NCBI RefSeq assembly: GCF_016735595.1
Contig: NZ_JAERRB010000005.1
Coordinates: 434,001-498,000, forward strand
Length of the DNA: 64,000 nt
From: Chryseolinea lacunae
GTDB lineage: Bacteria; Bacteroidota; Bacteroidia; Cytophagales; Cyclobacteriaceae
Direction: 5' to 3'
Shown: one piece after another, positions 41,524-61,864 of the stretch
Position numbering within the stretch: the first letter of the stretch is position 1
How the letters are laid out: every line of letters starts with the position of its first letter
The notes under the pieces: model-generated
The model's database searches: none
What the model was told of the DNA's origin: nothing
The model's input: only the letters and a program-made list of their open reading frames with translations
Program-made: the position numbers and the translations under genes

Positions 41524-42489
41524 TCAGTTATTGCCATACGCCCTGTTGTGCTTCAGATAGTTGTCGACATAGTCGGCGATGCCGTCTTCGAGCGTATAAA
41601 ACTCTCGTGTGTATCCTGCGTTTCGCAGCTTGTCGACATTTGCGCGGGTGAAATATTGGTAGGTGTGCCGCATCTTCTCCGGCATGTCTATGAATTCGAT
41701 GGCTTCGGGTTTGCCGCATACGCGGAAGAGTGCTTGTGCCAGGTCGCAAAAACTTCGGGCCTTTCCGGAACCGACGTTGTAGATTCCAGACGCGGGGCGA
41801 TGGTGCGCCATGTGCAGGCATACATCAACAATATCTTCGACATAGATAAAGTCGCGTTCCTGCCGGCCGTTTTCGAATTGCGAATTGTAGGATCGAAAGA
41901 GTTGAATCTTATGCGTGGTGTTGATTTGATGATAGGCATGCCAGATGACCGATGCCATCCTGCCTTTGTGATTTTCGTTGGGGCCAAACACATTGAAGAA
42001 TTTCAGACCCGCCCAAAACGGCGGTCGCTGTTCCTGCTTCAATGCCCACGTGTCGAAGTGATGTTTTGAGTCGCCATAAGGGTTGAGGGGTGTGAGGCTG
42101 TCGAGGTGATCTTCGTCGTCGTTGAAGCCCAGCGTTCCCGCGCCGTAGGTGGCGGCCGAAGAAGCATAAACCAACGGGAGGTCATAGCGCACACAGCGTT
42201 GCCAAATGGCTTTTGTGTAGTCGGTGTTGAGTGCTCGCAGCAGTTCACGATCAAACTCAATGGTGTCGGTTCGTGCACCGAGGTGAAAAATAAAATCGAC
42301 AGCGGCGTGATGCTTGTCGAGCCACGCCAGAAAGTGACGGCGGTCAACGCGCGTCAGGTTTGGCACATCGCGCAGACGGTTCTTGCGTTCCTCGTCGTGG
42401 AAGTTGTCTACCGCCACAATTTCGGCACCACGCAATTTTCTGGCAAGCACACTGCCGATAAAGCCCAGCGCACCGGTGACTACGATCAT
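41524..42489 (-). CDS. hldD: ADP-glyceromanno-heptose 6-epimerase
   Basis: A 321-residue short-chain dehydrogenase-type epimerase. NADP-binding start MIVVTGALGFIGSVLARKLR; the HldD-specific block ATYGAGTLGFNDDEDHLDSL; catalytic Tyr/Lys in NPYGDSKHHFDTW; FNVFGPNENHKGRMASVIWH; and QERDFIYVEDIVDVCL. It turns ADP-D-glycero into ADP-L-glycero-D-manno-heptose, the donor used by GT9 heptosyltransferases. Such an enzyme is encoded in the same cluster at 57024. Confidence 0.95.
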   Translation of the reverse strand: MIVVTGALGFIGSVLARKLRGAEIVAVDNFHDEERKNRLRDVPNLTRVDRRHFLAWLDKHHAAVDFIFHLGARTDTIEFDRELLRALNTDYTKAIWQRCVRYDLPLVYASSAATYGAGTLGFNDDEDHLDSLTPLNPYGDSKHHFDTWALKQEQRPPFWAGLKFFNVFGPNENHKGRMASVIWHAYHQINTTHKIQLFRSYNSQFENGRQERDFIYVEDIVDVCLHMAHHRPASGIYNVGSGKARSFCDLAQALFRVCGKPEAIEFIDMPEKMRHTYQYFTRANVDKLRNAGYTREFYTLEDGIADYVDNYLKHNRAYGNN

Positions 42490-43719: not shown

Positions 43720-45411
43720 TTACGTTAAAAATGGAATTAGCAATTCTGATCCCTCGGCAACGACGATGTCGCCGTTTGTTTGCCGATCGTAGCATATGTT
43801 ACCGTAGTCGAATTTGAGAATCCGATCGGCGCACGAAAAGTAGGCATCATCATGTGTTACGGCGATGATCGTTTTTCCCATGGCTCTTAGCTTTTTGAGA
43901 AACACCTTGTAGAAGTAGGCTCTGAAAACAGGATCCTGCTCAGCCGCCCACTCGTCCAACACCAGCACATCTCTTTCCTCCATCAACGCGTATACCATGG
44001 CTAGCCGCTTTTGCTGACCCTTTGATAGCTCGTGATGGATCCGGTTGTTGTCGTCATCGAATACGACAATCTTTGATAGCTGCATCTCGCCAATGTGGGC
44101 GCGTAGCGTCGGGTTGCTGCTCGACAAATTAAACTCATCATAGTTTTCATTAAACAGGTGGTTTTGAGTGAATATTACGGATAGTTTATTGCTGTAATAA
44201 GGATAGTTCTCCAGCAGAATTTTGTTTTCGTTGTAGTAGATATGACCGGCAACAGGCTTGTAGAGACCTGTGAGCAAATGAATGAAAGTGCTTTTTCCAC
44301 TTCCATTTCCACCTACAATAAAGATCACTTCGCCCTTTCGTATCTCCAGGTTGATCGGCCCCACAACAAAAGGCTTCTCGCTTTCCTTCGCGGCATATTC
44401 ATAGGTCAGCTGTTCGAAGCGCAGGCTTTGAAAATCGCCATTGAAGTCGAGCGCCGAATTGTAGGAGATGTCGCGTTCGGTGATGGTGCTCATGGTGTCT
44501 TCGTATTTCTTTAGTCGCTCCATGGCAATTTTCACACTGGTGTAGAACGGAACAAGCGTTATCAGCGTGCCCACCGGCCCGATGAGATAAAGTATGGTGA
44601 CAATGAAGGTCGACACCATGCCCGTTTTCACATCGGTAATCACGGGAAGCAAATACATGACAAGTCCGAGAATGATGTACCAGCTGTAGCGGCCCATCAA
44701 TTCGTTGTCGAGATATTTTATCGCTGTGGTTTCACCGAGACGTTTGCCGGTTACCCGGTTCGTGCGCAAACAGGTGTTAAAAATATTCTCGCTGCGCTTG
44801 AGACCCATTTTGATTTCCTTAAACCCCTGCAACATGTCGTTGAGGTAGCGGTAGTAGTCGTTTTGCAGGTCGCGGAGTTTATTCAGCTCCGTTTCAATGC
44901 CTTTGTTCCGCTTCAGGTATACCAACAGCAAGAACACGATCACACCCAGAATAAACACGCCGCCTATAGGGGAATTTATGAACATATAGCCCATACAGCA
45001 CAGCACGATGATGGCCGAGTTGAATGCATTGATAAAGGTTTCCGGAATCTTGCCCAGCACACGTGTGTCTGAGATTGCCGTGAACACTTTCTCCACGCCC
45101 AGTTGCTCGAAGGCCTCGAATTCAGCATGTCGCAGTTTTTCGAGTACTTCCATCTCGAATTTGAACAGGATGTCGTTGGTTAGCTTCACCACATAGTATT
45201 GAAATATTTTGCTGCAAATGGCGGAGATCACAATGACACCAAAAAACAATGGCGCATTATATTTCGCATTGTCAAACAATGTGTGGTTCGAAATAGAATT
45301 GTTAATCAGTATCAGTAATCCGGTATAGGTAATGCTGTTCACTATCCCTAACAGTACCAAGAACGAGTAAAATATTTTTGATTTGCTCTTGAAGACATTG
45401 TAGATGTTCAT
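43720..45411 (-). CDS. Cyclic-peptide-export type ABC transporter (membrane and ATPase fused)
   Basis: About 563 residues from the ATG at 45411. N-terminal six-helix membrane domain (about 10-300) and C-terminal ATPase: Walker A with K373 in GGNGSGKSTFIHLL, signature LSKGQQKRLAMVYAL, Walker B DVLVLDEWAAEQDP, and H-loop AVTHDDAYF. The WAAEQDP after Walker B and the KGQQKRLA signature are typical of SyrD/PvdE-like exporters of nonribosomal peptides. It would move the product or a precursor across the inner membrane. It follows the PKS gene by about 40 nt. Confidence 0.92.
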   Translation of the reverse strand: MNIYNVFKSKSKIFYSFLVLLGIVNSITYTGLLILINNSISNHTLFDNAKYNAPLFFGVIVISAICSKIFQYYVVKLTNDILFKFEMEVLEKLRHAEFEAFEQLGVEKVFTAISDTRVLGKIPETFINAFNSAIIVLCCMGYMFINSPIGGVFILGVIVFLLLVYLKRNKGIETELNKLRDLQNDYYRYLNDMLQGFKEIKMGLKRSENIFNTCLRTNRVTGKRLGETTAIKYLDNELMGRYSWYIILGLVMYLLPVITDVKTGMVSTFIVTILYLIGPVGTLITLVPFYTSVKIAMERLKKYEDTMSTITERDISYNSALDFNGDFQSLRFEQLTYEYAAKESEKPFVVGPINLEIRKGEVIFIVGGNGSGKSTFIHLLTGLYKPVAGHIYYNENKILLENYPYYSNKLSVIFTQNHLFNENYDEFNLSSSNPTLRAHIGEMQLSKIVVFDDDNNRIHHELSKGQQKRLAMVYALMEERDVLVLDEWAAEQDPVFRAYFYKVFLKKLRAMGKTIIAVTHDDAYFSCADRILKFDYGNICYDRQTNGDIVVAEGSELLIPFLT

Positions 45412-45452
45412 ATGCACTAAAAGTTAGGGTTAGAAAAAGAAGAAAGGCTGCA

Positions 45453-48400
45453 CTAGTTGATGTTCACAGAAATATTTTCCAACACTTGCGCGGGAAACAT
45501 CTTTTCGAAAATGGCGTTTGTCAACTCGCGTAGGGTTGAGCGGGTGTAGACGATACTTGTTTCCATTTTGACTTGAAACTTTTCCTGCACCATTTTTATA
45601 AATTCAATGGCCATGAGCGAATCCATGCCCGTGTCCAGGAGGTTCCTGTCGATGTCGAGCGCACAAATGCCGAGCACGCTTTCTGTAATCAACTGAAGGT
45701 TGTGAACGATGAGTGCGCGTGATTTATCTTCCGGCAAAATCCGGATCTGTTGCGACAGTGGTGTAACGTCTTCTTCGGCATCGGCCGCCTGAGGTGCGGG
45801 AAAGTCGTTGAACATGGCAGTCGTCTGACTAAACACCTGAAAGAGTTTTCGCACATCGCAGTCCATAGCCACAGCCTGACGCGCACGTTGCACCGCCAGC
45901 CGATCGAGAATTTGCGGAATGGCGGCAACGTCCAGCAGCCTGAGTCCTACTTTTGCCATAAAACTTTCGTCGAACACGTCTTTCAATTTTGCCACCATGC
46001 CCAGTTTGCCCACAGGCCCCCAGTTAATGCACAGGCACGGCAGGCCACACGATTTGCGATAGTGTGCAAAGCCGTCGAGAAATGCATTTGCCGCTGCATA
46101 GCCACTCATTTGTTTTGATCCGGTGAGCGAAGAGATCGACGAAAAACAGATGAAAAATTCAAGACGCATCTCTTTCGTGAGTTGGTGAAGATTCCAGGTG
46201 CCCACCGTTTTGGGAAGCAGCATGGCGCTGAATTCGTCCTCACTTTGGTCTTGCGCCATTTTTAGCTGGGCCGTTCCGGCAGCGTGGACAACACCGCCCA
46301 CTTCGCGATCTAAGGTGTTGAACACGGCTTCGATCTCATGACGTTTGGCAACATCGGCCTTTCGCACCTGAATGTTCACCGTGTGACTGACCAAACGACT
46401 AAACGATTCCTGATCGCCGATGACACCGCTCTTGGTGACCAGCACCAGGTGCCGGGCTCCCTTGCGTATCAGCCACTCTGCTGTTTGCAATCCCAGACCG
46501 CCAAGCCCCCCCACCACGACATAGGCCTTTTGTGCATCGCACACCAGGCCAGACGTTATGCTGGCAGGTGCGGCACTCTTGACCATGCGCATCACAAAGC
46601 GTTCGCTGTTGCGATAGGCAATCCGGTCCTCCTTGCTCACGTGGCATAGTTCGTCGCGCAAACGGACAACGTTCGTTTCGTCGTTGTCCACATCGAGGTC
46701 AATGTTTTTGAATTTGATCCTGGGATTTTCAAGGCCCAGGGTGCGGCCGAGTCCCCACAGGGTGGCGTGTTGCACGCGAAGATTTTGTTCTGTGTCGACT
46801 ACATGTTGGGTGGCCCGTGAAATGATAAAGAAATGAAGATCGTTTTTGCGATACGTCGAAAAGGCATTGAAAAGATGAATCACCGATTGGCATGTGCGCA
46901 TGTATTCACTACACAGCTCGTCGCCCGAAAAATCGCCGGGAAGAGACGTGCCGTCGAGGCACCAGAGGTTCACCAATCCTTTCACCACCATAGACGGATG
47001 ACGGATTATATCGGTTGCCAGTTTTTCACAGTGACTCGCGTTGGCGGGGTCGATCCGGTAGTGAAACGGATCAACCTGCTGATAGCGATCGTTCTGCTCC
47101 ACCAGAATGTAGGGGCGATCGTGTTGCGCGAGTTGCTGCATCAGCCGGTCGGCAAAGCCCGACCGATCGGCAAGCAAAATCCAGGGTTGATCTTTTGTGA
47201 GGTCCGTTTCCGGCAGCGCAGCGTCGTCGTCATTGATTTTCCAGAACACATCGTAAAGAAGATTGTCTACCGTTTTGTCGGGCAGCTGTTTGGTGCTGGG
47301 GGTTTCCGGTTGGGGCGTGGTGGTGCTCCGATTGTTGTCGGTGAGCCAGTAGCGTTTCCGTTGAAATGGAAATTTCGGCAGGTCGCAACGGTGCGCGCCT
47401 TGCGGATAGAGGTTTTCCCAGTTCACATCAAACCCGATGGCATATAGCTTTGCCAGTGCGGTGTACATTGTCTTATGGGCGCTTTCGTCGCGCTTCAGGG
47501 ACGTGAGCACCACGGCTTCTTTTCCGCTTGCTTCCAGCACCTGGGTGATCGGCGACGACAACACGGGGTGAGGCCCTATTTCGAGAAACACGTTGAATTG
47601 GTCGCGCAGCAAACTTTCCATAGCCGCGGCAAACCGCACAGGGCTCACCACATTTTGAACCCAATAGTCAGCACCGAACTCCAGACCGTCGCGAACATCG
47701 CCGGTGAGGGTAGAATAAATCGGAACGGCATGCATGTGAGATTCAACGCTACCCATATGTGCCTCCATGGTTTCGCTGCAAGCTTGCATGAGCGGGCTAT
47801 GAAAGGCGTAGTCTCTCGAAAAATCTTTCACGGCAAGACCCTTGCTTTTTAGTCGCGCCACGGCCATTGCCAGCCGATCGTGTTTTCCGGAAATCAAGGT
47901 GTTTGCATGGCTATTGTAGGCAGCAATGCTAACGTCGCTTCCAAATTCCGATGCAGGCAAATTTCCGTTCACCGTGGCCGGATCGTGATAGACGATGGCC
48001 ATGGCGCCGTGACCTTTGATTTCCTGCATGGTCTTGCCACGATGATATATAATTTTTATGGCGTCGTTCAGGGTAAGAACGCCGGCCACACAGGCTGCTG
48101 CCACTTCGCCCATGCTGTGGCCCACCACGGCGCTGGGCACGATGCCCCAACTCTTCCAAAGTTCGGCCAGCGCTATCTGAATGCTGAAGATGATGGGCTG
48201 GGCAAACTCTGTTTCATTATGGTCTACCCATTGACGGTCTTCTGTTATTTTGTTTATGAGCGACCAACCGGCCGACTCTGCTTTTAGCAGCCGTTCGCAT
48301 TGTTTGATGACGTTGCGAAAAACTTCTTCCTGCGCAAACAATTCGCGCGCCATTCCCAGCCATTGTGCTCCTTGTCCGGAGAAAACAAACACCAGGTTTT

Positions 48401-51400
48401 GCTGTTGGTGCGTTTTGGTTCTGCCGGGCATTGCAAAGGCATTGACCCGTTTTTGAACACTGTCGCCCAACACCTGCAACAGGTGGACCGGCGAATCAGA
48501 CACCACCCCAAGCCTGCAGGGATGATGCATGCGTTTCACTCCTGCTGCATGCGCCGCGTCGGTCATGTTGAATGCCCCGTGTGCCGCTTGCTTCTGAAAT
48601 GTTTTCGTATAGTCTATCAACGCCTCGGGCGTGTGGGCCGACAGTGGAAAAATGTTCCAGCGCGATGGCTTGCCTGATGCCGGCGGTATTGCCAGCCAGG
48701 GTTCCAGGCTCGATGGTGCTTCGTGTCGCGAAGTTCGCGCATAGATCGTGTTCCAATCGACATCGTGGCCTGCTTCGCAGGCGGCCGAGAGGGTGGCGAG
48801 CATCGTCTTTCGCGCATCCTCGTTTCGTTCGAGCGTGCTTTTTATCCACGCATTTTTCTCCTTGTTGTCAAGTGTTTCGCTAATGGATTTGCTGAGGATC
48901 GGATGCGGACTCAGTTCGATAAACAAATGATCCTGTTCACCCGCCAACACACCAATGCCCTGAAAGAAGCGGACCGGCTTTCTCAAGTTGTGAACCCAGT
49001 AGGTGCTGTTGAACTGTTCATAGCCGAGGCGTTTCCCATGAACGGTTGAAACGATGGGGATATGCGCCGGCAAGGGCGTGATGTCGGACAGGGCCTCCAG
49101 AAGTTCTTTGCGCAGGCTGTCCATCTGTGCACTGTGCGACGCCACATCCACGTTGATTTGTTTGCAATAGATGTTGGCCGTGTTCAATTGATCTACGATT
49201 GCGGCCACTGCGGTGGTGTCGCCCGAAAGAACGGTGGATACGGGACTGTTGTAGGCTGCAATGGAAACGCTGTCGCCATACGGTGCCAGTATCGGGGCAA
49301 GGGCATCGCTGTTCAGTTCTACTACGGCCATGCTTCCCTTTCCGGCCACGTTCGACAAGAGTCTGCTTCTGACGCAAATGATTTTCATGGCATCGCGCAA
49401 GGTCAACACTCCGGCGATGTGCGCCGCGGCCACCTCTCCCATGCTGTGACCGATCACCACGTTGGGCCGGATGCCCCACGATTCCCACAATGCCGCCAAT
49501 CCCACCTGAATGGAAAAGATGAGCGGCTGAATGATTTCTATCGGAGTTTGTTTTGCACTGGCGCCGGCGGTGAGTTCTTCAAGAACCGAAACACCATAAA
49601 ATGTTTTACCAAGGGCATCGCATTGTTTGATTTTGCTTCTAAACACAGGTTCGTGTTGAAGCAACGACAAGCCCATGCCAATCCATTGCGACCCCTGACC
49701 GGAGCACACAAACGCGATTGGCGGCACAGTGCTGTTGATATCTGTTTTTTCGGCAAAAGGTTCACCGCCCAGCGCGGTCGTTAGTTGCATGGCAAGGTCT
49801 TCGAACGTGTCGGCCGTGAATGCGCGGCGATGTGCGGCAAGCGAAACTCTGCTATTGATGGCAAAGCAAAACTCGCTCAGTGTAAGTGTCTTTTCTGCCT
49901 GGACCAGTGTTAACGTGGCCTTCATCAGATTCTGTAATTCCTCGTGCGTGGTCGACGACAAGGTTAACAGGGCTTGGAGCCGCGATTGCGCTTCGCCTTG
50001 CAACACCACGTGACAGTTGGTGCCTCCAAAACCAAATGAACTAACCCCCGCGAGTGCAGGCTTGCCCAGTTCGGGCCATGGCGTCAGCGTTTTGGGAACG
50101 CTCAGCTTCAACTCGTTGAACGAGATGTTGGGGTTGGGACTTTCGAAATTAAGATTCTGCGGAATTTGTCTGTGTTCTATGGCCAGCGCTACTTTGATGA
50201 GGCCTGCAATTCCGGCAGCGCCTTCGAGGTGACCAATGTTTGTTTTGACAGAGCCCAACAACAGTGCGTTGTCGTCATTTCGATTTGCCGATAAGATCTT
50301 GCCAAGGGCTTTTGCTTCGATGGGATCGCCCAGGATGGTGCCCGTCCCGTGAGTTTCTACGAAGTGAACTTTGTGCGGTTCCACCCCTGCGCGTTCGTAG
50401 GCTTCGCTCAGGGCTTCTTCCTGGGCCTTGGGATTTGGTGCGGTCAGGCCGTTGCTAAAGCCGTCGTTGTTCACGGCGCTCTCCAGCACGGTGGCATAGA
50501 TGCGGTCGCCATCGCGCAATGCTTTCGACAATGGTTTCAGGACCACCACGCCGCCGCCTTCTCCACGTACATAACCGTTTGCGCGCGAATCAAACGCCTT
50601 CGATTGTCCGTCGGGCGCCATGGCTCCGAATTTGGCCATGGCGATTGTGCTTTCGGGTGTCAATATCAGGTTCACGCCGCCGGCCAGTGCCATATCGCAT
50701 TCGCCTCTGCGAATGCTTTGCATGGCCAGGTGCACGGTGACGAGACCGGAAGAACACGCGGTGTCGATGGTGAGGCTGGGGCCGCGAAGTCCAAACGTGT
50801 AGGACACGCGGTTAGCAATGATGCTGTGGTGCAGCCCTGTGGCTGTGTGCTGAACAATGTTGTTTGGACCATTGCGGCTGTTCAAGATGAGGTAGTCGTT
50901 CCAGATGGCGCTGTAAAACACACCGGTCTTACTGTCTTTCAATGACGCCGGAACAACGCCCAGGTCTTCAAACGCCTCCCACGAAAGTTCGAGCATGAGC
51001 CGCTGTTGCGGATCTATCTGAACGGCCTCCTTGGGTGTGATGCCAAAAAATTCGGGATCAAATTTATCTACCTGTTCCAGAAACCCTCCCCATCGTGTGT
51101 TCATCTTTCCCGCCTGGGTATTGTCGCTGTCATAAAACTCGTCAGCGTCCCATCGATCGGCGGGCACATTCACAATGCCGCTGAGGCCATTCTTCAACAA
51201 CTCCCAGTAGGCATTCTTATCGGCCGCATTTGGAAAACGGCAAGCCATGCCCACGATGGCGATCGGCTCGTGTGTTACGGGTGTGTAGTCGCGCGGGCGG
51301 GTCTGCGTTGATGGTGCCGGGCCCGATTTTTTTGATATCAGGTGGGCGATCAGTTCCTGAAGGGTTGGATAATCCCAAACCAACGTCTGCTCCAGTGGCC

Positions 51401-51563
51401 TTGAAAGCCAGGCGGATAATTTATGTATAAGTAATGTCGCATTTTTCGAATCCAGTCCATATTCTTTGAAGCGCTTGTGGATGCTGATTTGATTTCTGTC
51501 AATGCCCAGTATATCGGACAATTTCTCCAGCAACCATGAACGTATTTCATGTTCCTCTTTCAT
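45453..51563 (-). CDS. Type I polyketide synthase ACP-KS-AT-AT-KR-ACP
   Basis: A 2,036-residue PKS. ACP1 about 5-78 (carrier S39 in GLDSKNA). KS 99-525 with C270 (DTACSSG), H405 (HGTGT) and H445 (NIGHLEG). AT1 about 613-905, S707 in GHSMGE, specificity motif VASH at 807-810. AT2 about 970-1345 with its own linker, S1150 in GHSMGE, motif YAFH at 1252-1255. KR about 1430-1900 (GGLGGLG at 1685-1691, active Tyr in GYAAAN at 1822). ACP2 with S1982 (GMDSLMA). No dehydratase, enoyl reductase or thioesterase. The N-terminal ACP plus two ATs matches myxobacterial first modules (for example MtaB of myxothiazol), where AT1 loads the starter and AT2 the extender. KR would leave a 3-hydroxyl. The gene directly follows the serine A-domain gene. 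Confidence 0.95.
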   Translation of the reverse strand: MKEEHEIRSWLLEKLSDILGIDRNQISIHKRFKEYGLDSKNATLLIHKLSAWLSRPLEQTLVWDYPTLQELIAHLISKKSGPAPSTQTRPRDYTPVTHEPIAIVGMACRFPNAADKNAYWELLKNGLSGIVNVPADRWDADEFYDSDNTQAGKMNTRWGGFLEQVDKFDPEFFGITPKEAVQIDPQQRLMLELSWEAFEDLGVVPASLKDSKTGVFYSAIWNDYLILNSRNGPNNIVQHTATGLHHSIIANRVSYTFGLRGPSLTIDTACSSGLVTVHLAMQSIRRGECDMALAGGVNLILTPESTIAMAKFGAMAPDGQSKAFDSRANGYVRGEGGGVVVLKPLSKALRDGDRIYATVLESAVNNDGFSNGLTAPNPKAQEEALSEAYERAGVEPHKVHFVETHGTGTILGDPIEAKALGKILSANRNDDNALLLGSVKTNIGHLEGAAGIAGLIKVALAIEHRQIPQNLNFESPNPNISFNELKLSVPKTLTPWPELGKPALAGVSSFGFGGTNCHVVLQGEAQSRLQALLTLSSTTHEELQNLMKATLTLVQAEKTLTLSEFCFAINSRVSLAAHRRAFTADTFEDLAMQLTTALGGEPFAEKTDINSTVPPIAFVCSGQGSQWIGMGLSLLQHEPVFRSKIKQCDALGKTFYGVSVLEELTAGASAKQTPIEIIQPLIFSIQVGLAALWESWGIRPNVVIGHSMGEVAAAHIAGVLTLRDAMKIICVRSRLLSNVAGKGSMAVVELNSDALAPILAPYGDSVSIAAYNSPVSTVLSGDTTAVAAIVDQLNTANIYCKQINVDVASHSAQMDSLRKELLEALSDITPLPAHIPIVSTVHGKRLGYEQFNSTYWVHNLRKPVRFFQGIGVLAGEQDHLFIELSPHPILSKSISETLDNKEKNAWIKSTLERNEDARKTMLATLSAACEAGHDVDWNTIYARTSRHEAPSSLEPWLAIPPASGKPSRWNIFPLSAHTPEALIDYTKTFQKQAAHGAFNMTDAAHAAGVKRMHHPCRLGVVSDSPVHLLQVLGDSVQKRVNAFAMPGRTKTHQQQNLVFVFSGQGAQWLGMARELFAQEEVFRNVIKQCERLLKAESAGWSLINKITEDRQWVDHNETEFAQPIIFSIQIALAELWKSWGIVPSAVVGHSMGEVAAACVAGVLTLNDAIKIIYHRGKTMQEIKGHGAMAIVYHDPATVNGNLPASEFGSDVSIAAYNSHANTLISGKHDRLAMAVARLKSKGLAVKDFSRDYAFHSPLMQACSETMEAHMGSVESHMHAVPIYSTLTGDVRDGLEFGADYWVQNVVSPVRFAAAMESLLRDQFNVFLEIGPHPVLSSPITQVLEASGKEAVVLTSLKRDESAHKTMYTALAKLYAIGFDVNWENLYPQGAHRCDLPKFPFQRKRYWLTDNNRSTTTPQPETPSTKQLPDKTVDNLLYDVFWKINDDDAALPETDLTKDQPWILLADRSGFADRLMQQLAQHDRPYILVEQNDRYQQVDPFHYRIDPANASHCEKLATDIIRHPSMVVKGLVNLWCLDGTSLPGDFSGDELCSEYMRTCQSVIHLFNAFSTYRKNDLHFFIISRATQHVVDTEQNLRVQHATLWGLGRTLGLENPRIKFKNIDLDVDNDETNVVRLRDELCHVSKEDRIAYRNSERFVMRMVKSAAPASITSGLVCDAQKAYVVVGGLGGLGLQTAEWLIRKGARHLVLVTKSGVIGDQESFSRLVSHTVNIQVRKADVAKRHEIEAVFNTLDREVGGVVHAAGTAQLKMAQDQSEDEFSAMLLPKTVGTWNLHQLTKEMRLEFFICFSSISSLTGSKQMSGYAAANAFLDGFAHYRKSCGLPCLCINWGPVGKLGMVAKLKDVFDESFMAKVGLRLLDVAAIPQILDRLAVQRARQAVAMDCDVRKLFQVFSQTTAMFNDFPAPQAADAEEDVTPLSQQIRILPEDKSRALIVHNLQLITESVLGICALDIDRNLLDTGMDSLMAIEFIKMVQEKFQVKMETSIVYTRSTLRELTNAIFEKMFPAQVLENISVNIN

Positions 51564-51639: not shown

Positions 51640-53244
51640 TTAAACGGAGCGTGGGTCCGGCAATGCTTTCCGATCGGCCTTGCCGTTTGGCGTCAAGGGG
51701 ATGGCATCAAGCTTTATGAACCGCGAAGGGATCATATAGTCGGGCAAGTTGCCTGCCAGGAAGTTTTTCAATTCTTTGGGTGCTATTTCGGTCGTCGCGG
51801 TGTAGTAGGCCACAATCACGACGACGCTTTCGGAGTATTGTCTGGTATGGACAATGCACTCGTCAATTTGTTCGTGCTTCAGCAACCGGGCTTCAATTTC
51901 TCCCAGTTCAATGCGCAGTCCGCGAATTTTCACCTGGTTGTCGATGCGGTTGATGTAGTCGATGTTGCCATCGGGAAACCAACGGGCCAGATCGCCCGTC
52001 CTGTACATTTGTTCGCCTTCAGCAAAAGGATTTTTTACAAATTTTTGTGCCGTCAGTTCCACGCGATTCAAATACCCTCTCGCCACGCCTACGCCGGCAA
52101 TGATGAGCTCGCCTTCTTCGCCCACCGACAAAACATTGTGTTCGTGGCCGGCAATATAGATCTGCGTATTGCTGATGGGTTTTCCGATCGGAATTTTTCC
52201 TTCCACCTCGCCGTTTGCACAATCATAGTGCGTTACGTCGACCGTGGCTTCCGTGGGACCGTAGAGGTTGATTAGCGATTTGTTGCCGTCTACATTAAAC
52301 AATGTATTGAACTGACTGACGTGTTTGGTGCTGAGCTTTTCTCCGCTGGCAAAAACCAGTCGCACGCTTGCCAGTTTGTTTGTGCTGTCGTAGGCCTGGA
52401 TGTATTCCAGAAACACACCGAGCATAGACGGCACAAAATGCATAACGGAAACGCTATGCTGTTCGATGGTGTCGATAATCGTGGCCGGATTTTTTTCACC
52501 GTTTGGTGCCAGAAGACACATTTGCGCGCCTTCTATGGCCCACCAGAACAACTCCCACACCGACACATCAAAATTGTAGGGTGTCTTTTGCAGCAGCACA
52601 TCGTCTGGCTGAATGGGATAGGCATGTTGCATCCACTTCAACCGATTCACTACCGATCGATGTTCGATGAGCACACCCTTGGGCATGCCGGTTGAGCCCG
52701 AGGTGTAGATGACATAGAGCAGGTCGCGACTGGTGTTGATGCACGGCAGCGGCTGGTCGTCTACAGGCACGTTAAAATTTTCAAGCGCCACCACGGCGCC
52801 GGTGAAGTCCTTCACCTTGTCGCGCCACTCTTCCTGTACAAGCAGGATGCCCGCCTGACTGTCGTCGAGCAGCAGCAGCACTCTGGCAAAGGGATCGTAG
52901 GGAGAAAGGGGAAGGTATGCGCCACCGGCTTTCATGATACCAAAGATTCCGATTATCATTTCGAGCGATCGCGTGCACAGGATGCCCACAATCTGTTCGC
53001 GGCAAACACCTTCCTTGCGGAGGTGGCGTGCCAACGCATTGGCGCGGGCATTCAGTTCGCCGTAGGTCAGCGTTTCATTTTTATATTTCACGGCGATGCG
53101 GCCGGGATCGCGCGCCACATGGCGTTCGAATAATTCCTGCACGGTCACGTCTTCTTCGAACGGAAAATCGGTGTCGTTGAAGTCGATCAACACGTCGGCT
53201 TCGTTCGCAGCCCATGCGGTGGTTTTTGGATACGTGGTGTTCAT
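51640..53244 (-). CDS. Free-standing adenylation domain, serine code
   Basis: About 534 residues from the ATG at 53244 (MNTTYPKTTAW); longer readings overlap the next gene and are not protein-like. A-domain cores: LLYVIYTSGSTGMPKG (A3), NFDVSVWELF (A4), NLYGPTEATVDV (A5), YRTGDLARW (A7), DNQVKIRGLRIELGEIE (A8) and NGKADRKAL (A10). By alignment to GrsA the pocket reads D-V-W-H-F-S-L-V-D-K, the serine code of EntF. No carrier is attached. With the ACP, acyl dehydrogenase and hydroxyacyl dehydrogenase upstream it forms the gene set that makes aminomalonyl-ACP in zwittermicin (ZmaJ, H, I, G). Alternatively it loads Ser onto the C-T protein. Confidence 0.92.
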   Translation of the reverse strand: MNTTYPKTTAWAANEADVLIDFNDTDFPFEEDVTVQELFERHVARDPGRIAVKYKNETLTYGELNARANALARHLRKEGVCREQIVGILCTRSLEMIIGIFGIMKAGGAYLPLSPYDPFARVLLLLDDSQAGILLVQEEWRDKVKDFTGAVVALENFNVPVDDQPLPCINTSRDLLYVIYTSGSTGMPKGVLIEHRSVVNRLKWMQHAYPIQPDDVLLQKTPYNFDVSVWELFWWAIEGAQMCLLAPNGEKNPATIIDTIEQHSVSVMHFVPSMLGVFLEYIQAYDSTNKLASVRLVFASGEKLSTKHVSQFNTLFNVDGNKSLINLYGPTEATVDVTHYDCANGEVEGKIPIGKPISNTQIYIAGHEHNVLSVGEEGELIIAGVGVARGYLNRVELTAQKFVKNPFAEGEQMYRTGDLARWFPDGNIDYINRIDNQVKIRGLRIELGEIEARLLKHEQIDECIVHTRQYSESVVVIVAYYTATTEIAPKELKNFLAGNLPDYMIPSRFIKLDAIPLTPNGKADRKALPDPRSV

Positions 53245-53261
53245 GGTGCGTTCAGTTTTTA

Positions 53262-54410
53262 TCAATTGAGCACGAGCGGTTCGGCACGGTTCACATAATA
53301 GTTTCCCAGAACATTTTGCAACACCTGTGTGGTGCCCTCTATGATTTCCATGATTTTTGCGTCGCGATAGAAGCGCGCGGTTGGCGACGACTCTTCGTGG
53401 CATCCGTGTGCACCCGAGATGACCACCGCCTGCGATGCTGCGCTGACGGCATTTCGGGACGCGACATATTTCGCAAGAATTGTTTTTTCTATGGCCTGAA
53501 GCGAACGATTGTCTTCTGCGGTGGCGGCATTCAAACACATCATCAAGCTGGTGTCGTAGCTGATCCCCATTTCGGTGATGACGGCCCGGATGGAACTGAT
53601 GTTGTTCAAGGTGGCATGCGACACCACGCGCGTCGACGCCCGCTTGATGCTCGTTTCCATGGCGGCGCGAATGAGCCCCACCGACGAAAACGCTGTGCTC
53701 AGTCGGCCATAGTGCAGCCCCAAGGGCGCGATGTGCGAGAGCGCAAATCCTGCTTTGCCAATGACGTTGGCGGCGGGAATCTGCACGTCGTGAAAATCGA
53801 GCTGTGCCAGGTGACACGCCTTGAATCCGAGCATGTCGCGAATGGGTGTGACTTCCACACCCGGCATATCTTTTTCAACCACACAGGCTATGGGACGACC
53901 GTTGAGCTTACCAAACACCAGGTAGATGTCTGCTATTCCCGCAAAGGTGATCCATCGTTTTGTGCCGTTGAGCACGAGCATGTCGCCGTGTGACTCGAAC
54001 TGTGTGCCGATGGACTGTATGTCGCTGCCAACGTTGGGTTCGGTCAGCGCAAAGGATGCAACGATATCGCCCTTTGCCATGGGGGGAATCCATTTGGCAA
54101 CCTGCTTTGCGCTTGCCCATTTGAGCAAACACGTGGCCACCATGTTTTGCACCGTAAACAAAACGGTTAGCGATGAGCTGCCGCGTCCAAACGCTTCGTT
54201 CAGCAAGCCGAACGTCACAAAGTCCCACGCCTTTCCGCCCAGTGCCTCGGGCACAATAGCCCCGAAATAGCCTTCGCGCCCGATGGCCCGAATGACGTCG
54301 CGCGGCATTTGCTGGTGGAGGTCCCAGTCGCCGGCATAGGGCGTGACGTTGTCGTTTACAAAATCGCTAAACTCCCGGTAGCGATCTCGTTGGGCTTGGT
54401 CGAGGTTCAT
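53262..54410 (-). CDS. FkbI/ZmaI-type acyl-CoA dehydrogenase
   Basis: About 382 residues from ATG 54410. Flavoprotein of the acyl-CoA dehydrogenase fold acting on ACP-bound substrates: FGAIVPEALGGKAWDFVTFG, SFALTEPNVGSDIQSIGT, GTKRWITFAGIADIYLVFGK, MPGVEVTPIRDMLGFKACHL, and FYRDAKIMEIIEGTTQVLQN at the C-terminal end. The whole pattern follows FkbI of methoxymalonyl-ACP and its aminomalonyl counterpart. It would oxidise the 3-hydroxy-derived aldehyde or acyl to the malonyl acid level. It starts directly after the ACP stop (2 nt) and ends 17 nt before the serine A-domain gene. Confidence 0.9.
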   Translation of the reverse strand: MNLDQAQRDRYREFSDFVNDNVTPYAGDWDLHQQMPRDVIRAIGREGYFGAIVPEALGGKAWDFVTFGLLNEAFGRGSSSLTVLFTVQNMVATCLLKWASAKQVAKWIPPMAKGDIVASFALTEPNVGSDIQSIGTQFESHGDMLVLNGTKRWITFAGIADIYLVFGKLNGRPIACVVEKDMPGVEVTPIRDMLGFKACHLAQLDFHDVQIPAANVIGKAGFALSHIAPLGLHYGRLSTAFSSVGLIRAAMETSIKRASTRVVSHATLNNISSIRAVITEMGISYDTSLMMCLNAATAEDNRSLQAIEKTILAKYVASRNAVSAASQAVVISGAHGCHEESSPTARFYRDAKIMEIIEGTTQVLQNVLGNYYVNRAEPLVLN

Positions 54411-54412
54411 CA

Positions 54413-54667
54413 CTACTTTCCTTGTTTACGTCTCACAAAATTGCACACTGCGTCAACGGACTTAAAGTTATCCATGTCTAGGTCGTCCTGCGTAATTTCC
54501 AAACCAAACGATTTTTCAATAAACGTGACGAGCTGTATAGAAAAAAGCGAATTCACAATTCCCGAATCAAACAGATCTTCATCGTCGCGAATGTCGCCGA
54601 TGCCAATGCTCTTTGTGATGAATTTCCGAACGGACGTTTTCACGTCGAAGTCTGCCAATGTTTCCAT
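54413..54667 (-). CDS. Free acyl carrier protein (FkbJ/ZmaH type)
   Basis: An 84-residue carrier protein. The phosphopantetheine Ser is S40 in FDSGIVNSLFSIQLV; the residue before it is Asn where Asp is usual. Helices FDVKTSVRKFITKSIG and FSIQLVTFIEKSFG and the acidic helix ITQDDLDMDNFKSVDAVCNF fit the fold. Its place between the two dehydrogenases shows that the extender unit is made on this carrier rather than on coenzyme A. Its stop abuts the acyl dehydrogenase start. Confidence 0.92.
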   Translation of the reverse strand: METLADFDVKTSVRKFITKSIGIGDIRDDEDLFDSGIVNSLFSIQLVTFIEKSFGLEITQDDLDMDNFKSVDAVCNFVRRKQGK

Positions 54668-54687
54668 ATGTTGTTTAGTTATGTTGG

Positions 54688-55554
54688 TTAGTTTGCTTGG
54701 TGAGCGTAGTCATAAAATCCCTTTCCCGATTTTCGACCCAGGTTTCCGGCGAGCACCATCTTGCGCAGCAGCGGGCAACACCTGAATTTGCTGTCGTGAT
54801 AACTTTCGTATAGCACATCGATGGATCGCATCACCGTGTCGAGCCCGATGAGGTCGGCGGTTTCGAGAGGCCCCATGGTGTGGCCATAGCATTTCTTGAA
54901 GATGGCATCGATCTGCTGCGGGTTGGCCACCTGGTCTTGCACCACGTAGGCCGCCTCGTTCATGAAGAGGTGCGAAATCCTGTTGGACACAAAGCCCGGA
55001 TAGTCGTTTACCACAATAGACTCCTTGCCCATCTGGCGGAGCAGTGTTTCCAATGCCTGCAGTGTTTCGTTGGAGGTATGAAATCCGCGAATGACTTCTA
55101 CGGTGGGTTTCAGAAATACCGGGTTCATGAAGTGCACGCCCACAATTCGTTCGGGTCGCGAAACAACGCTGCCCGCCTGTGTTATGGATGTGCACGATGT
55201 GTTCATGCCAAAGCAGATGTCGCTGTCGCATATCAGGTCCAGGGCTTTGTATACGTGTTCCTTTATCGTCCACTCTTCTGTCACGTTCTCGACGATGAAC
55301 TCGCAGTTCCTAACGTCGTCGAGGTGTGTAGAGAAAGTTACGCGCTCCAGCACGGTCACTTCCGAAACTGCCTTCACATGCTTTGCGAGCATCGGTGCAA
55401 ATCGAAGGGTTTTTATGATTTCCGCCCGGGCTTCCTTCAGCCGATCTTCGGAGACATCGATCAGCACAACATCCATGTCGTGCAACAACAAATCTGCAGT
55501 CACGCTGACACCCATCGTTCCTGCACCAATAACACCTATAGTTGAAAATTTCAC
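54688..55554 (-). CDS. FkbK/ZmaG-type 3-hydroxyacyl-ACP dehydrogenase
   Basis: A 288-residue NAD-dependent dehydrogenase starting with GTG at 55554. NAD loop GVIGAGTMGVSVTADLLLHD (GxGxMG at 8-14); ENVTEEWTIKEHVYKALDLI (E-N-x-x-E active loop); HFMNPVFLKPTVEVIRGFHT with the catalytic His; and the C-terminal LMRSIDVLY-like TVMRSIDVLYESY and GRKSGKGFYDYA. It oxidises the 3-hydroxyl of the ACP-bound serine or glyceryl group. Only the FkbH (glyceryl-loading) partner of the methoxymalonyl route is missing from the window, while a serine A domain is present, which points to aminomalonyl. Confidence 0.92.
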   Translation of the reverse strand: MKFSTIGVIGAGTMGVSVTADLLLHDMDVVLIDVSEDRLKEARAEIIKTLRFAPMLAKHVKAVSEVTVLERVTFSTHLDDVRNCEFIVENVTEEWTIKEHVYKALDLICDSDICFGMNTSCTSITQAGSVVSRPERIVGVHFMNPVFLKPTVEVIRGFHTSNETLQALETLLRQMGKESIVVNDYPGFVSNRISHLFMNEAAYVVQDQVANPQQIDAIFKKCYGHTMGPLETADLIGLDTVMRSIDVLYESYHDSKFRCCPLLRKMVLAGNLGRKSGKGFYDYAHQAN

Positions 55555-58229: not shown

Positions 58230-59891
58230 TTAAACGGTTTCGAGCAGCTCGGCCGTCTCCGCTTCCTGTAGCGACAGGGTTTGCTGGCCGGCTGTATAGT
58301 GATAGAGCAACTCCTTCTCTCCGAACAAGCGCTCCGACACGATGCCGCGGCTCAAACATTCGTTCACAAGTTTGTCTGATGCCACAATGGGGTTAGACTC
58401 GGGTGTGTATTTCAGGCTGCTTATAAATTCCAGCCAAGGTTCCTGACCCATGGCATAGACATACACTTCCTTCGGTTTGAAAACATTCACCAGCGCTATT
58501 CCCTTTTCGTAGTTAGACCCTGCCAGGCGTCGCGAGTTGTCCATGTCGCGGGGAAGATCTTCCGACAGCAGCGGGCCGTATAGCCATGTCAACGGCGCAC
58601 CGTCGCATTCCATGCCCAGGAAGATGATATCGACATCGCCCATCTGGCGATGCACATGTTCATATAACTGAGGGGTGACGTTGCACGAGTCTGCAACAAA
58701 CAACATGGTGAAGTCGCCCACCCGCGCATGATGACAGACTTTTGAATGAATATTCAGATCGCTGTGTTCGCCGATAAACGGAATGCCCGTTAAGGTGCAA
58801 TCCGGAAACTCCATCGGTTCCATCTCATCGATCTCCACCACATTTTTGAATCCCAAGCTTTTGAACATGAGCTTCAGGTTGGGGTCCTGCAAGGCACCGC
58901 TGGTGCTTTTGGGAATCACCAGGTTTTTGATTTTATGACGCAACGGAAGCAGTGTCTCGAAAAGGATATGATCCTGGTGGTTGTGTGTTATCAGCACATA
59001 GTCGATAACGTCGGGAAGATCCATGTCCGAAAACCTCGACACATCCGAATAGTAGCCATAGTAGCTGATGATGGGATCGATAAGGATGTTCACGTCTTTT
59101 GTTTCCACGAGTATGCAGGCATGGCCGAAGTAGCGCATCCGCAGCTTGTCGCCCTCATATTTTTTATAGGCCGGTGGTGCCTCGTCTGTAAAGAATGTCT
59201 CAAACAATTTTTCTTGTTCGGGCGTCAGCGTCACCTGTGCTTTCAGGTCGGTCAGTGCTTTGGGGGTTCGTCTCATTTCGCTCAACGCATCGATGAAGGT
59301 GCTGTTGAAGGGTATGTTCAAATGCAACACATCGTTGCTGTCTACACGAGGGGTGCTGAGCACAAACGGCCGCTGATCGTTGTTTGTTATCCAAAACGAA
59401 AAGCTTTGCATCGACGGCTTGTAGAACTCGCTGGCGTAAAGCAGATGTTCAAAAAAACGAAACGACGGATTGTTGTTGAGATCGTATACCAGCTCCACAT
59501 ATCCCTTGAGAATTTCCGGAACTTTATCATAGAGCGGCTCCAGCGAATAGCCCTTCACATGACTCTTCAACAATTTTTCGAGCGCTGTGATGGCGTCCGA
59601 AAATTCCAGCAGGTCTTTGTGATTGGTTTGCGTTTGCTCCCTCAGGTTCTTTACTTCCTGCATGCTTCCCTGGGGCAAGTCCATGAACGGACCGCCCAAC
59701 AATTTAGGATTCTTCACAGCCGCAGCATGCACATGAGGTGCCTGAATGTAGGAGTTCATAATCTTGAGATGTCTGCCCGAGATGTTGCGGGCTGCGGTTG
59801 CGGGAGAAATCAAATGGGGCCACGCATACCAGCGATCGACCAGCGGCTCGATCACCACATTGGGTTTCAGGTAGAATAATTTTTCACTCAT
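58230..59891 (-). CDS. CmlA-type di-iron beta-hydroxylase
   Basis: About 553 residues from the ATG at 59891 (MSEKLFYLKPNVVIEPLVDR). An N-terminal arm of about 230 residues precedes a metallo-beta-lactamase fold. Metal ligands by position: H303, H305, D307 and H308 in THNHQDH, E375 in PFIGEHSDL, and D401 in VADSC. These correspond with a constant shift of two to the CmlA ligands H305, H307, D309, H310, E377 and D403. CmlA-type enzymes hydroxylate the beta carbon of an amino acid bound to a carrier domain. The gene follows the C-T protein (68-nt gap), and its likely substrate is a residue on that carrier or the Asn-type one. Confidence 0.92.
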   Translation of the reverse strand: MSEKLFYLKPNVVIEPLVDRWYAWPHLISPATAARNISGRHLKIMNSYIQAPHVHAAAVKNPKLLGGPFMDLPQGSMQEVKNLREQTQTNHKDLLEFSDAITALEKLLKSHVKGYSLEPLYDKVPEILKGYVELVYDLNNNPSFRFFEHLLYASEFYKPSMQSFSFWITNNDQRPFVLSTPRVDSNDVLHLNIPFNSTFIDALSEMRRTPKALTDLKAQVTLTPEQEKLFETFFTDEAPPAYKKYEGDKLRMRYFGHACILVETKDVNILIDPIISYYGYYSDVSRFSDMDLPDVIDYVLITHNHQDHILFETLLPLRHKIKNLVIPKSTSGALQDPNLKLMFKSLGFKNVVEIDEMEPMEFPDCTLTGIPFIGEHSDLNIHSKVCHHARVGDFTMLFVADSCNVTPQLYEHVHRQMGDVDIIFLGMECDGAPLTWLYGPLLSEDLPRDMDNSRRLAGSNYEKGIALVNVFKPKEVYVYAMGQEPWLEFISSLKYTPESNPIVASDKLVNECLSRGIVSERLFGEKELLYHYTAGQQTLSLQEAETAELLETV

Positions 59892-59959
59892 AGTAGTAAT
59901 AGAAAGAAGTAAAAAAAACTTATGAACGCGATGCGACAAACGTCGTCTTTGGTTTTAGT

Positions 59960-61846
59960 TCAAGATCGCGCAACCGCGGGCAACTGTTGTTGCAGAAATC
60001 CGGCGATCGTTGCTATTGTAGGACAGCAGTATGCTGTGCGGGCATGAAATACAACCCCCGTGCTTTTCTGAATGATGTCTGCCGCGGCAACAACTTCCAT
60101 GGATGTTGCGCCAAGCAAGAAGATATTGTCGTGAATGCTCATGCCAGCGGTGTTCAGAATGTCTTGCCAAACCTGCGCCAGCATGGCTTCAAGCTGGTTT
60201 CGGGGTGCGGTGAAAACGGCATCAGATTGCACCGGCTTTGCTGTTTCGGCCTGCGTTGCATGGCGTGTAGTCATGGCGAACTCGCGATCATGGTCCGACA
60301 CCACGTGCAGCGCGTTCAGCCTTACCGTGCTGTCTGCCACAACAAATTCCAATATTTTTAAAAAATGCCACCACACCAAATTCACATAGGCATAGTCATA
60401 AACATCGGTGTTGTATTGCAGCGAAAGGCTGAGGCCGTATTCTTTCTCATAGAACGTGAAGGCCAAATCAAACTTGCTGGTATTTCTTTTGCATTCATAG
60501 GGTTGAATTGTTACTTCGGATGCGGGTTGTGCCGACAGCGCGTTGGCGAACCCGGCCGGCGCATTCAAGTCGATGTTCTGCAGGGCCACGATCACATCAA
60601 ACACGGGCGACCGTGTTGTGTCGCGCGCCAGAGGCAACGCTTCCACAAGTTTGTCGAGTGGGTAGCGTTGATGCTCGAACGCTTCCAGCGCGGTGGCTTT
60701 GACACGATGCACCAATTGAGCAAACGAGTCGTCGTGGCGGAAGCGTGTGCGCAATGGCAACATGCTGGTGTAGAGACCAACCTGATCTTCGAGGTCGGCA
60801 TGGTCGCGACCCGCCGTGGGTGTTCCCACAATCACATCGGTTTGGCCGGTGTGTGTATAGAGCACTGTTATGATGCCGGCCAGAATCGTCATAAACAAAC
60901 TGGCCTGCTCTTCGCGCGCAATCCGTTTCAATCCCAGCATAATGTTTTTGGGAACAACGTAGTCAATGGCATCACCGCGAAAGGTTTGAATGCCCGGTCG
61001 TGTTTTCATGCCCGGCAGGCTGAGCACGGGAATGTTGCCCCGAAGTTTTTGAAGCCAATAGGCTTTTTCAGCGCCCTGGCCAGACAACAGCTGGTTGTTT
61101 TTCCAGGCCACATAGTCTTTGTATTGTATTTTCAGGGGTGTCCATGTGCGTGTTTCGTTGGCAACGTGCGCAGCATAGCGGCGCATCAATTCGGAGTAGA
61201 GCACTTTGTTTGACCACCCATCGCTAACGATGTGATGTGTGGTCATTAAAAGGATGACTGTTTCACCGTCCATGCGAAGCACCTTCACTTTAAACAAAGG
61301 GCCCGTGGCCAGGTCGAACACCGTGAGCGACTCTTCCTGTGCGATTGCCTTTGCCTTCTGTTCCCTGTCGGGGCATTCGCGAAAATCCTCTACGCACACC
61401 GAAAAATTCACTTCGGCAACGCTGTGTATTTTTTGCTTCACGGCATCGCCCACGCGATGAAATGTTGTTCGCAGAATTTCATGCCGCGCGGCAAGATCGG
61501 CAAACGCTGCAGCCAGTGCGTTGACATCGAGGCCGCGTATGCGATAGGACGCGGGCATGTTGTAGGCTACCGGCGCTTCGGCCAACTGATGCCACAACCA
61601 CATGCGCCGCTGTGCGGGCGACACGTCGTAGTATTCCTGTTTGGCGGCGAGGGGTATGTTTTGAAAATCGTCGTTGTGCGAACCGGCATTCAAATAGGCC
61701 ACGATCTCGAATTTTCTGGCGCGCAAATCGGCGAGCAAGGTTTCGGGAACTTTCCCTCCCAACGCCGTAACGTTCAGGTTGTTGTCAACACATCGCACGA
61801 CAACCTGCGACTCGCGGCATCGTAGCAGTAGGTCTGTTACGCTCAT
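59960..61846 (-). CDS. NRPS protein: TubC docking, condensation, carrier; no adenylation domain
   Basis: A 628-residue protein. TubC docking domain about 1-52 (VTDLLLRCRESQVVVRCVDN). Condensation domain about 70-500, active motif HHIVSDGW (H204, H205, D209, G210), with VGTPTAGRDHADLEDQVGLY typical of LCL type. Carrier about 552-622 with S582 in FLLGATSMEVV. Its carrier must be charged in trans, for example by the free serine A domain, or receive an intermediate. It starts 19 nt after the upstream NRPS, whose acidic tail (GEREEIII) is a plausible partner for the docking domain. The CmlA-type hydroxylase follows. Confidence 0.93.
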   Translation of the reverse strand: MSVTDLLLRCRESQVVVRCVDNNLNVTALGGKVPETLLADLRARKFEIVAYLNAGSHNDDFQNIPLAAKQEYYDVSPAQRRMWLWHQLAEAPVAYNMPASYRIRGLDVNALAAAFADLAARHEILRTTFHRVGDAVKQKIHSVAEVNFSVCVEDFRECPDREQKAKAIAQEESLTVFDLATGPLFKVKVLRMDGETVILLMTTHHIVSDGWSNKVLYSELMRRYAAHVANETRTWTPLKIQYKDYVAWKNNQLLSGQGAEKAYWLQKLRGNIPVLSLPGMKTRPGIQTFRGDAIDYVVPKNIMLGLKRIAREEQASLFMTILAGIITVLYTHTGQTDVIVGTPTAGRDHADLEDQVGLYTSMLPLRTRFRHDDSFAQLVHRVKATALEAFEHQRYPLDKLVEALPLARDTTRSPVFDVIVALQNIDLNAPAGFANALSAQPASEVTIQPYECKRNTSKFDLAFTFYEKEYGLSLSLQYNTDVYDYAYVNLVWWHFLKILEFVVADSTVRLNALHVVSDHDREFAMTTRHATQAETAKPVQSDAVFTAPRNQLEAMLAQVWQDILNTAGMSIHDNIFLLGATSMEVVAAADIIQKSTGVVFHARTAYCCPTIATIAGFLQQQLPAVARS

Positions 61847-61864
61847 GGTTTACCGGCCGGTGTG

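What the first reader, a model, noticed from the sequence alone, without database searches (positions are those of the whole stretch)
51640..55554. Serine-derived aminomalonyl-ACP extender cassette beside its PKS
Seen: four consecutive tightly spaced genes encode 3-hydroxyacyl dehydrogenase, free ACP, FkbI-type acyl dehydrogenase and a free A domain whose pocket reads DVWHFSLVDK, identical to the EntF serine code. Known: ZmaG, ZmaH, ZmaI and ZmaJ make aminomalonyl-ACP from serine with exactly these four activities. Inferred: this cassette does the same and feeds the PKS that starts directly downstream. Such extenders are rare, and I know of none described in a Bacteroidota cluster.
Basis: partly seen in the sequence, partly recalled or inferred. 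Interest (0 to 1): 0.86.

Follow-up and report, generated by a model that had tools for sequence, protein, structure and literature searches.

The report
Serine-to-aminomalonyl gene cassette beside polyketide synthase
Four neighbouring genes in a bacterial genome look like the known toolkit that turns the amino acid serine into a rare, nitrogen-bearing building block for polyketide assembly lines; the toolkit is known, but it sits here in a bacterial group where I found no published case.

Summary
On the minus strand, 55554 to 51640, lie a 3-hydroxyacyl dehydrogenase, a free ACP, an acyl-CoA dehydrogenase (ACAD) and a free A domain, nearly touching; a PKS starts 76 nt on. The pocket, DVWHFSLVD, equals EntF at nine aligned positions. 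The cassette reading is well supported: all 9 free A domains beside related ACADs carry a serine code; the ACAD lies in a clade of all 10 serine-cassette ACADs plus one intruder (94/92); in three same-family genomes with both cassette types the two ACADs split as predicted; FkbH was not found in this genome (controls 3 of 3). Very probably an aminomalonyl-ACP cassette of the zwittermicin/colibactin kind. Two qualifications. "Feeds the adjacent PKS" is likely but unproven: that PKS has two tandem ATs, and a discrete AT and two AT-less KS proteins lie upstream in the cluster; AT motifs do not decide. And Aquimarina agarivorans and three same-family genomes carry cassettes too. No paper in the open library holds "aminomalonyl" with "Bacteroidetes" or "Bacteroidota". 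New member of a known kind.

The parts
54688..55554 (-). 3-hydroxyacyl-CoA dehydrogenase-type enzyme (HCDH; ZmaG-like role inferred): oxidises the serine hydroxyl on the ACP
   Evidence: 3HCDH_N, 3HCDH; one search shared residues; tree
54413..54667 (-). free acyl carrier protein, 84 aa, motif DSGIVNSL
   Evidence: PP-binding 1.6e-06
53262..54410 (-). acyl-CoA dehydrogenase-type flavoenzyme (ACAD; FkbI/ZmaI-like role inferred)
51640..53244 (-). free-standing adenylation domain, serine code DVWHFSLVD(K)
45453..51563 (-). type I PKS: ACP-KS-AT-AT-KR-ACP, the likeliest consumer of the unit (inferred)
   Evidence: two PP-binding stretches, N-terminal one at residues 10-75; the C-terminal one placed by reading the sequence
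48780..49712 (-). AT1 of the PKS: GHSMG, VASH
47550..48395 (-). AT2 of the PKS: GHSMG, YAFH
43720..45417 (-). ABC transporter downstream of the PKS, possible exporter (context)
58230..59939 (-). CmlA-type diiron beta-hydroxylase of the same cluster (context)
59960..64000 (-). NRPS genes (C-T; then an A-T-C-A-T gene running out of the window) of the same cluster (context)

Best explanation
The four genes make (2S)-aminomalonyl-ACP from L-serine. The free A domain forms seryl-AMP and loads serine on the free ACP (its pocket is shown; the loading is inferred). The 3-hydroxyacyl dehydrogenase oxidises CH2OH to the aldehyde, and the FkbI-like flavin dehydrogenase takes the aldehyde to the carboxylate (both inferred from family). 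An acyltransferase then moves the aminomalonyl unit to a PKS ACP; the KS condenses it with loss of CO2, leaving an alpha-amino group, and a KR would make an alpha-amino-beta-hydroxy unit. The likeliest receiver is the adjacent ACP-KS-AT-AT-KR-ACP protein through one of its two ATs (inferred, about 0.6). The product belongs to a large NRPS-PKS cluster that runs to the contig end. The confidence given is for the cassette making aminomalonyl-ACP.
For: All four parts, in the order HCDH-ACP-ACAD-A and nearly touching. Pocket equal to EntF at nine of nine positions. Of 87 loci with a related ACAD, the script's thresholds find FkbH near the ACAD in 71, a free A domain in 9 and neither in 7; three of those 7 have FkbH matches that the thresholds left out. 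All 9 A domains read DVWHFS[LF][VI]D; with the query they are one side of a branch, SH-aLRT 100, against 38 NRPS A domains. Three NRPS A domains with a DVWHISL code come from ORFs on the NRPS side, so the group is not serine specificity alone. ACAD tree: query with L039/L040/L041/L086 at 100/96; all 10 serine-cassette ACADs in a clade of 11 at 94/92. In three genomes with both cassettes the two ACADs separate by cassette. No FkbH found in the own genome by a protein query or by TIGR01686; the same profile finds 1 in each of 3 relatives. Passages of PMC6395733 describe ZmaJ loading serine on ZmaH, with dehydrogenases of the same two kinds. In four sister loci a KS-AT PKS follows the A domain directly.
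Against: No biochemistry. One locus with FkbH and no A domain or ACP detected (L114, long branch, ACAD seemingly frameshifted) sits inside the serine clade, and the AU test rejects an exclusive serine clade (p 0.0006). The HCDH tree puts L113 and L117 away from the other serine cassettes. The four nearest serine loci also have a diverged FkbH-like stretch (29-32%, 123-137 bits) inside a large upstream protein; its role was not worked out. The ATs of the adjacent PKS lack ZmaF's GYSLG, and both keep a lysine in the carrier motif. A discrete AT and two AT-less KS proteins elsewhere in the cluster give another route.
Confidence: 0.82

Rival explanations
1. The cassette makes aminomalonyl-ACP, but the discrete AT (C25:519397-520653, outside the window) delivers it to the two AT-less KS proteins, as ZmaF and ClbG are discrete; the adjacent PKS uses only CoA units.
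For: The aminomalonyl ATs named in passages I read, ZmaF and ClbG, are separate proteins (ClbG's being free-standing is recalled). The discrete AT has APFH and no basic residue at the first carrier position (EAV), near ZmaF's GPFH/IAI. In the AT tree it joins the AT lying inside the Paenibacillus serine cassette, SH-aLRT 95.
Against: It is 40.6% identical to a Paenibacillus AT beside a gene annotated as class III aminotransferase with an adenylation-domain gene further on, and 34.7% to BamD, the malonyl-CoA transacylase of bacillomycin D; this cluster has a KS-aminotransferase protein without an AT. It passes the FabD cut-off, but so does the adjacent PKS, so that alone says little. Both branches are long, and the Paenibacillus AT keeps a basic KVT. 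GHSLG, not GYSLG.
Confidence: 0.3
2. A hydroxy- or methoxymalonyl cassette in which the A domain is incidental.
For: At least 71 of 87 related loci are FkbH cassettes; the ACAD is FkbI-like.
Against: No FkbH found in a genome listed as 100% complete; the ACAD groups with serine cassettes.
Confidence: 0.03
3. Serine is loaded and only partly oxidised (aldehyde stage), or used as a seryl donor for tailoring, not as a PKS extender.
For: Nothing here shows the second oxidation; the A domain and ACP alone would suffice for seryl transfer.
Against: An ACAD (the search query) and an HCDH are both found in 8 of the 9 other A-domain cassettes (no HCDH detected in L041), and a KS match lies in the held stretch of all 9, directly downstream of the A domain in 4.
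Confidence: 0.08
4. A silent or decayed cassette.
For: The query ACAD has a long branch (0.87).
Against: All four frames are open with shared active-site motifs and tight spacing.
Confidence: 0.04

Closest known systems
Zwittermicin A aminomalonyl-ACP genes (ZmaH, ZmaI, ZmaJ and a 3-hydroxyacyl-type dehydrogenase, ZmaG; AT ZmaF)
   Same: HCDH, ACP, ACAD and a serine-loading A domain (passages of PMC6395733; the name ZmaG is recalled)
   Different: Zwittermicin also has ZmaN and ZmaD/ZmaE for hydroxymalonyl and uses ZmaF as the aminomalonyl AT; here no FkbH was found and no AT lies inside the cassette
Colibactin aminomalonyl genes (ClbD-ClbF, AT ClbG; the serine A domain in ClbH is recalled)
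   Same: Same kind of extender (passages of PMC10924459)
   Different: ClbG passes the unit to ClbK; different host group and product. I did not fetch these genes
FkbG-K-type hydroxy/methoxymalonyl-ACP cassettes
   Same: HCDH, ACP and ACAD are homologous (at least 71 of 87 relatives)
   Different: FkbH loads a glycolytic unit (recalled; ZmaN as glyceryl-ZmaD synthase); here a serine A domain stands in its place
MAG cassettes L039, L040, L041, L086 (Verrucomicrobia and Acidobacteria by record title; soil origin guessed from the names)
   Same: Nearest relatives: ACAD 51-53%, A domain 51-52%, same order, PKS directly downstream
   Different: Their adjacent PKS shows one AT, in another clade of the AT tree, and its KS is only 40-43% identical; they also have an FkbH-like stretch in a large upstream protein

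Membership tests
aminomalonyl-ACP extender cassette (ZmaG-J / ClbD-F,H type) | A domain specific for serine | tested here: met
   Pocket DVWHFSLVD, same as EntF; groups with other cassette A domains. Sequence only
aminomalonyl-ACP extender cassette (ZmaG-J / ClbD-F,H type) | free ACP | tested here: met
   84 aa, DSGIVNSL
aminomalonyl-ACP extender cassette (ZmaG-J / ClbD-F,H type) | 3-hydroxyacyl dehydrogenase and FkbI-like acyl dehydrogenase with the usual active-site residues | tested here: met
   (residue roles recalled)
aminomalonyl-ACP extender cassette (ZmaG-J / ClbD-F,H type) | acyl dehydrogenase belongs with serine, not FkbH, cassettes | tested here: met
   one intruder (L114), so an exclusive clade is rejected
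aminomalonyl-ACP extender cassette (ZmaG-J / ClbD-F,H type) | an AT that takes aminomalonyl-ACP | tested here: inconclusive
   motifs and tree do not decide among AT1, AT2 and the discrete AT
aminomalonyl-ACP extender cassette (ZmaG-J / ClbD-F,H type) | aminomalonyl-ACP formed in vitro | not testable with these tools
   needs mass spectrometry
hydroxy/methoxymalonyl-ACP cassette (FkbG-K type) | FkbH-type glyceryl transferase/phosphatase | tested here: not met
   0 in the own genome; 1 in each of 3 control genomes

The most novel reading that the evidence does not exclude
A lineage of aminomalonyl cassettes (Bacteroidota side, Verrucomicrobia, Acidobacteria) hands the unit to an AT built into the adjacent PKS, here one of a tandem pair, instead of to a separate ZmaF/ClbG-type AT; the tandem AT module could choose between a CoA unit and an ACP-bound amino unit.
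Probability: 0.4. Interest if true: 0.6.

Novelty: new member of a known kind. Interest (0 to 1): 0.42.

Why it matters
Aminomalonyl is a rare extender that puts a free amine on a polyketide backbone. The characterised cases that I met in passages are zwittermicin (Bacillus), colibactin (E. coli) and a Xenorhabdus product. A cassette in a large cluster of a Bacteroidota-type genome, with its nearest kin in Verrucomicrobia and Acidobacteria MAGs, widens the known range and gives new ACP/AT pairs, perhaps a cis-AT, for studying how ATs choose ACP-bound units.

Tried and rejected
Rejected: FkbH outside the window (positive control). Rejected as decisive: the AT motif rules of PMC4207774 (passages), because the AT inside the Paenibacillus serine cassette keeps a basic KVT and the sister serine PKSs read ICR or ISR. 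Led nowhere: a tandem-AT search in the family (12 of 295 genomes including the own; the other 11 match only residues up to about 435 of a 667-residue query that held all of AT1 and only part of AT2). The plasmid search with both ATs (790 records matched, 10 listed) had two rows, Streptomyces NBC_00162 and NBC_01546, spanning both ATs; I looked at NBC_00162 alone, an ACP-KS-AT-AT protein. A PKS of the same KS family on contig C1 of the own genome has one AT region, and the genome has no second ACAD of this clade (1 match at E 1e-65). The best solved match of the A-domain pocket, 8xjz chain C 'Peptide synthetase', could not be identified from papers. Papers on zwittermicin AT recognition and on colibactin's aminomalonyl were not held.

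Rows dropped. ACAD matches of 100 bits or less, pieces under 300 aa and a second ACAD of L088 were left out; 96 rows; 42 more dropped (34 FkbH, 7 unclassed, and outgroup L020 with an artefact branch of 10); 54 rows; for each ORF the best A domain over 330 bits; 48 rows; 37 loci picked by hand plus the query; about every second FkbH-locus AT; 52 rows.

Literature: 'aminomalonyl' alone 23 papers (listing); with 'Bacteroidetes' 0; with 'Bacteroidota' 0; zwittermicin with Bacteroidetes 16 papers, with Chitinophaga 2 (listings). 'aminomalon' does not occur in PMC10734526 or PMC9248904 (passages); the former notes flavobacterial clusters sharing 7-22% of genes with zwittermicin A. Only this open library was searched.
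Full report
What is there. The window is contig C25:434001-498000 of a 7.9 Mb genome. On the minus strand, HCDH (55554-54688), ACP (54667-54413), ACAD (54410-53262) and a free A domain (53244-51640) follow each other with gaps of 20, 2 and 17 nt, and a 2036-residue PKS starts 76 nt on. Pfam agrees with all five.

Serine pocket. Aligned to EntF (5ja1), the A domain has the same residue at nine of nine pocket positions, DVWHFSLVD; the numbering of the positions is recalled. I compared 87 loci with a related ACAD: 80 kept of 123 confirmed in the genome scan, 4 from plasmids and 3 from same-family genomes. By the script's thresholds 71 have an FkbH gene near the ACAD, 9 a free A domain and 7 neither. 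Of those 7, L087, L110 and L118 have FkbH matches left out by the length or score limits; and three of the 9 (L036-L038) have an FkbH gene further off in the same stretch. All 9 A domains have a serine code, DVWHFS[LF][VI]D. With the query they are one side of a branch against 38 NRPS A domains, SH-aLRT 100. Of 96 A-domain matches over 200 bits in these loci, 12 start DVWH: the 9 cassettes and 3 NRPS domains reading DVWHISL. Those three come from ORFs on the NRPS side of the tree, so the grouping is more than shared specificity.

Dehydrogenase phylogeny. In the careful ACAD tree (54 rows: 10 serine, 40 FkbH, 4 outgroup) the serine rows lie in a clade of 11 with support 94/92, the eleventh being L114. 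The query is with the four MAG loci at 100/96. The serine label needs 2 changes, against 9.4 in shuffles, as low in 0 of 500. Against this, the AU test rejects the serine rows as an exclusive clade (p 0.0006), because of L114: a long-branched MAG locus with FkbH, HCDH and an ACAD that looks frameshifted, with no ACP or A domain detected. Three same-family genomes (G529, G638, G654) hold a serine cassette and an FkbH-ACP-ACAD set within 20 kb, with one detected HCDH, an arrangement like the zwittermicin one described. Their two ACADs fall on opposite sides as predicted. The HCDH tree (38 rows) shows serine cassettes in two separate places: query with L036-L040, L086 and L114, and L113 with L117. 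In zwittermicin one such enzyme is said to serve both routes, so HCDH need not follow the cassette type.

No FkbH. A cyanobacterial FkbH protein and TIGR01686 find nothing in the own genome. The same profile finds one copy in each of G529, G638 and G654, so the empty answer counts. The four nearest serine loci (L039, L040, L041, L086) do have a diverged FkbH-like stretch (29-32%, 123-137 bits) inside a large protein upstream; in L040 that protein has dehydratase, FkbM methyltransferase and carrier domains by Pfam. I did not work out its role, and I saw no such match in the own genome.

How common. In a phylum sample of 395 genomes including the own one, the best match in the 394 others is 187.5 bits, against 288-308 bits for the same-family cassette members, so by score none belongs to this clade; at most 4 candidates per genome were scored there. 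In a family sample of 295 including the own, 3 of 294 others pass E 1e-65, all in one other genus, and none of the 5 other same-genus genomes does (up to 6 candidates scored). Aquimarina agarivorans also has a cassette (L117). So it is rare and scattered, not unique.

Who uses the unit. The adjacent PKS is ACP-KS-AT-AT-KR-ACP (C-terminal ACP placed by reading the sequence); AT1 and AT2 are 40% identical. Motifs: AT1 GHSMG/YCK/VASH, AT2 GHSMG/AVK/YAFH, discrete AT GHSLG/EAV/APFH. Passages of PMC4207774 give ZmaF, the aminomalonyl AT, as GYSLG/IAI/GPFH, and malonyl-CoA ATs with a basic first carrier residue. No AT here matches ZmaF fully. The discrete AT, 34 kb upstream of the PKS start on the contig, resembles FabD and BamD and an AT beside an aminotransferase gene in Paenibacillus. 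This cluster has a KS-aminotransferase protein without an AT and a second KS-KR protein without one, so a malonyl role for the discrete AT is the simplest reading. In the four nearest sister loci a PKS directly follows the A domain (KS-AT-KR in three; in L039 the contig ends after the AT), and no discrete AT was detected in the 9.8-21 kb held.

The cluster. It runs at least from about 34.7 kb in the window to the contig end at C25:570132, with NRPS modules whose pockets read as Asp/Asn types (DLTKVGHIG, DLTKIGEV) and one as Gln (these readings are recalled; codes), TauD and CmlA-type hydroxylases, a MutE-type mutase, a carbamoyltransferase, sugar genes that look like a heptose set, and glycosyltransferases. 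I did not search for a known product.

Verdict. By the sequence tests available, a well-formed aminomalonyl-ACP cassette; a new member of a known kind in a group where the library searched has no paper naming it. The open and more interesting point is the AT that takes the unit.

Noticed in passing
L036, L037, L038 (G654, G638, G529; same family): Aminomalonyl and FkbH cassettes within 20 kb with one detected HCDH; in L037, the one scanned with Pfam, two sulfotransferase genes lie between them and a MacB/FtsX permease nearby. A zwittermicin-like double extender set in relatives of this genome.
   Followed up: partly
window 45453-51563; L132:14838-20216: Tandem cis ATs behind an N-terminal ACP and KS, also seen in a Streptomyces plasmid PKS (KS 56% identical); one AT of each pair has VASH, the other differs.
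   Followed up: partly
window 39413-42489, 57024-58181: SIS-domain, PfkB-cytidylyltransferase and epimerase genes that look like GmhA, HldE and HldD, and a weakly heptosyltransferase-like gene, inside the NRPS-PKS cluster: perhaps a heptose on the product.
   Followed up: no
L012:12929-14872 and L011:3-1661 (outside the window, same cluster): Methylaspartate mutase E-type gene and a carbamoyltransferase, with Asp/Asn-type A domains: perhaps 3-methylaspartate and a carbamoyl group in the product.
   Followed up: no
FkbH loci such as L030, L043, L048 versus L029, L044, L046: ATs in FkbH loci fall mostly into GYSIG/[AV]CR and GHSIG/[ED]CR types, perhaps ACP-unit versus CoA-unit ATs.
   Followed up: no
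L039:1-1719, L040:4739-8686, L041:4434-8618, L086:1200-5576: A large protein upstream of each of the four nearest serine cassettes has a diverged FkbH-like stretch; in L040 it also has dehydratase, FkbM methyltransferase and carrier domains.
   Followed up: partly
L114:942-4120: Verrucomicrobia MAG locus with FkbH, HCDH and an ACAD split over two frames, no ACP or PKS detected and a gene that reads like an Sfp-type transferase (by eye) next door; it branches inside the serine-cassette clade.
   Followed up: partly
L119:4290-10607 (own genome, contig C1): A second large PKS of the same KS family with one AT region (VASH); no second ACAD of the cassette clade is in this genome.
   Followed up: partly
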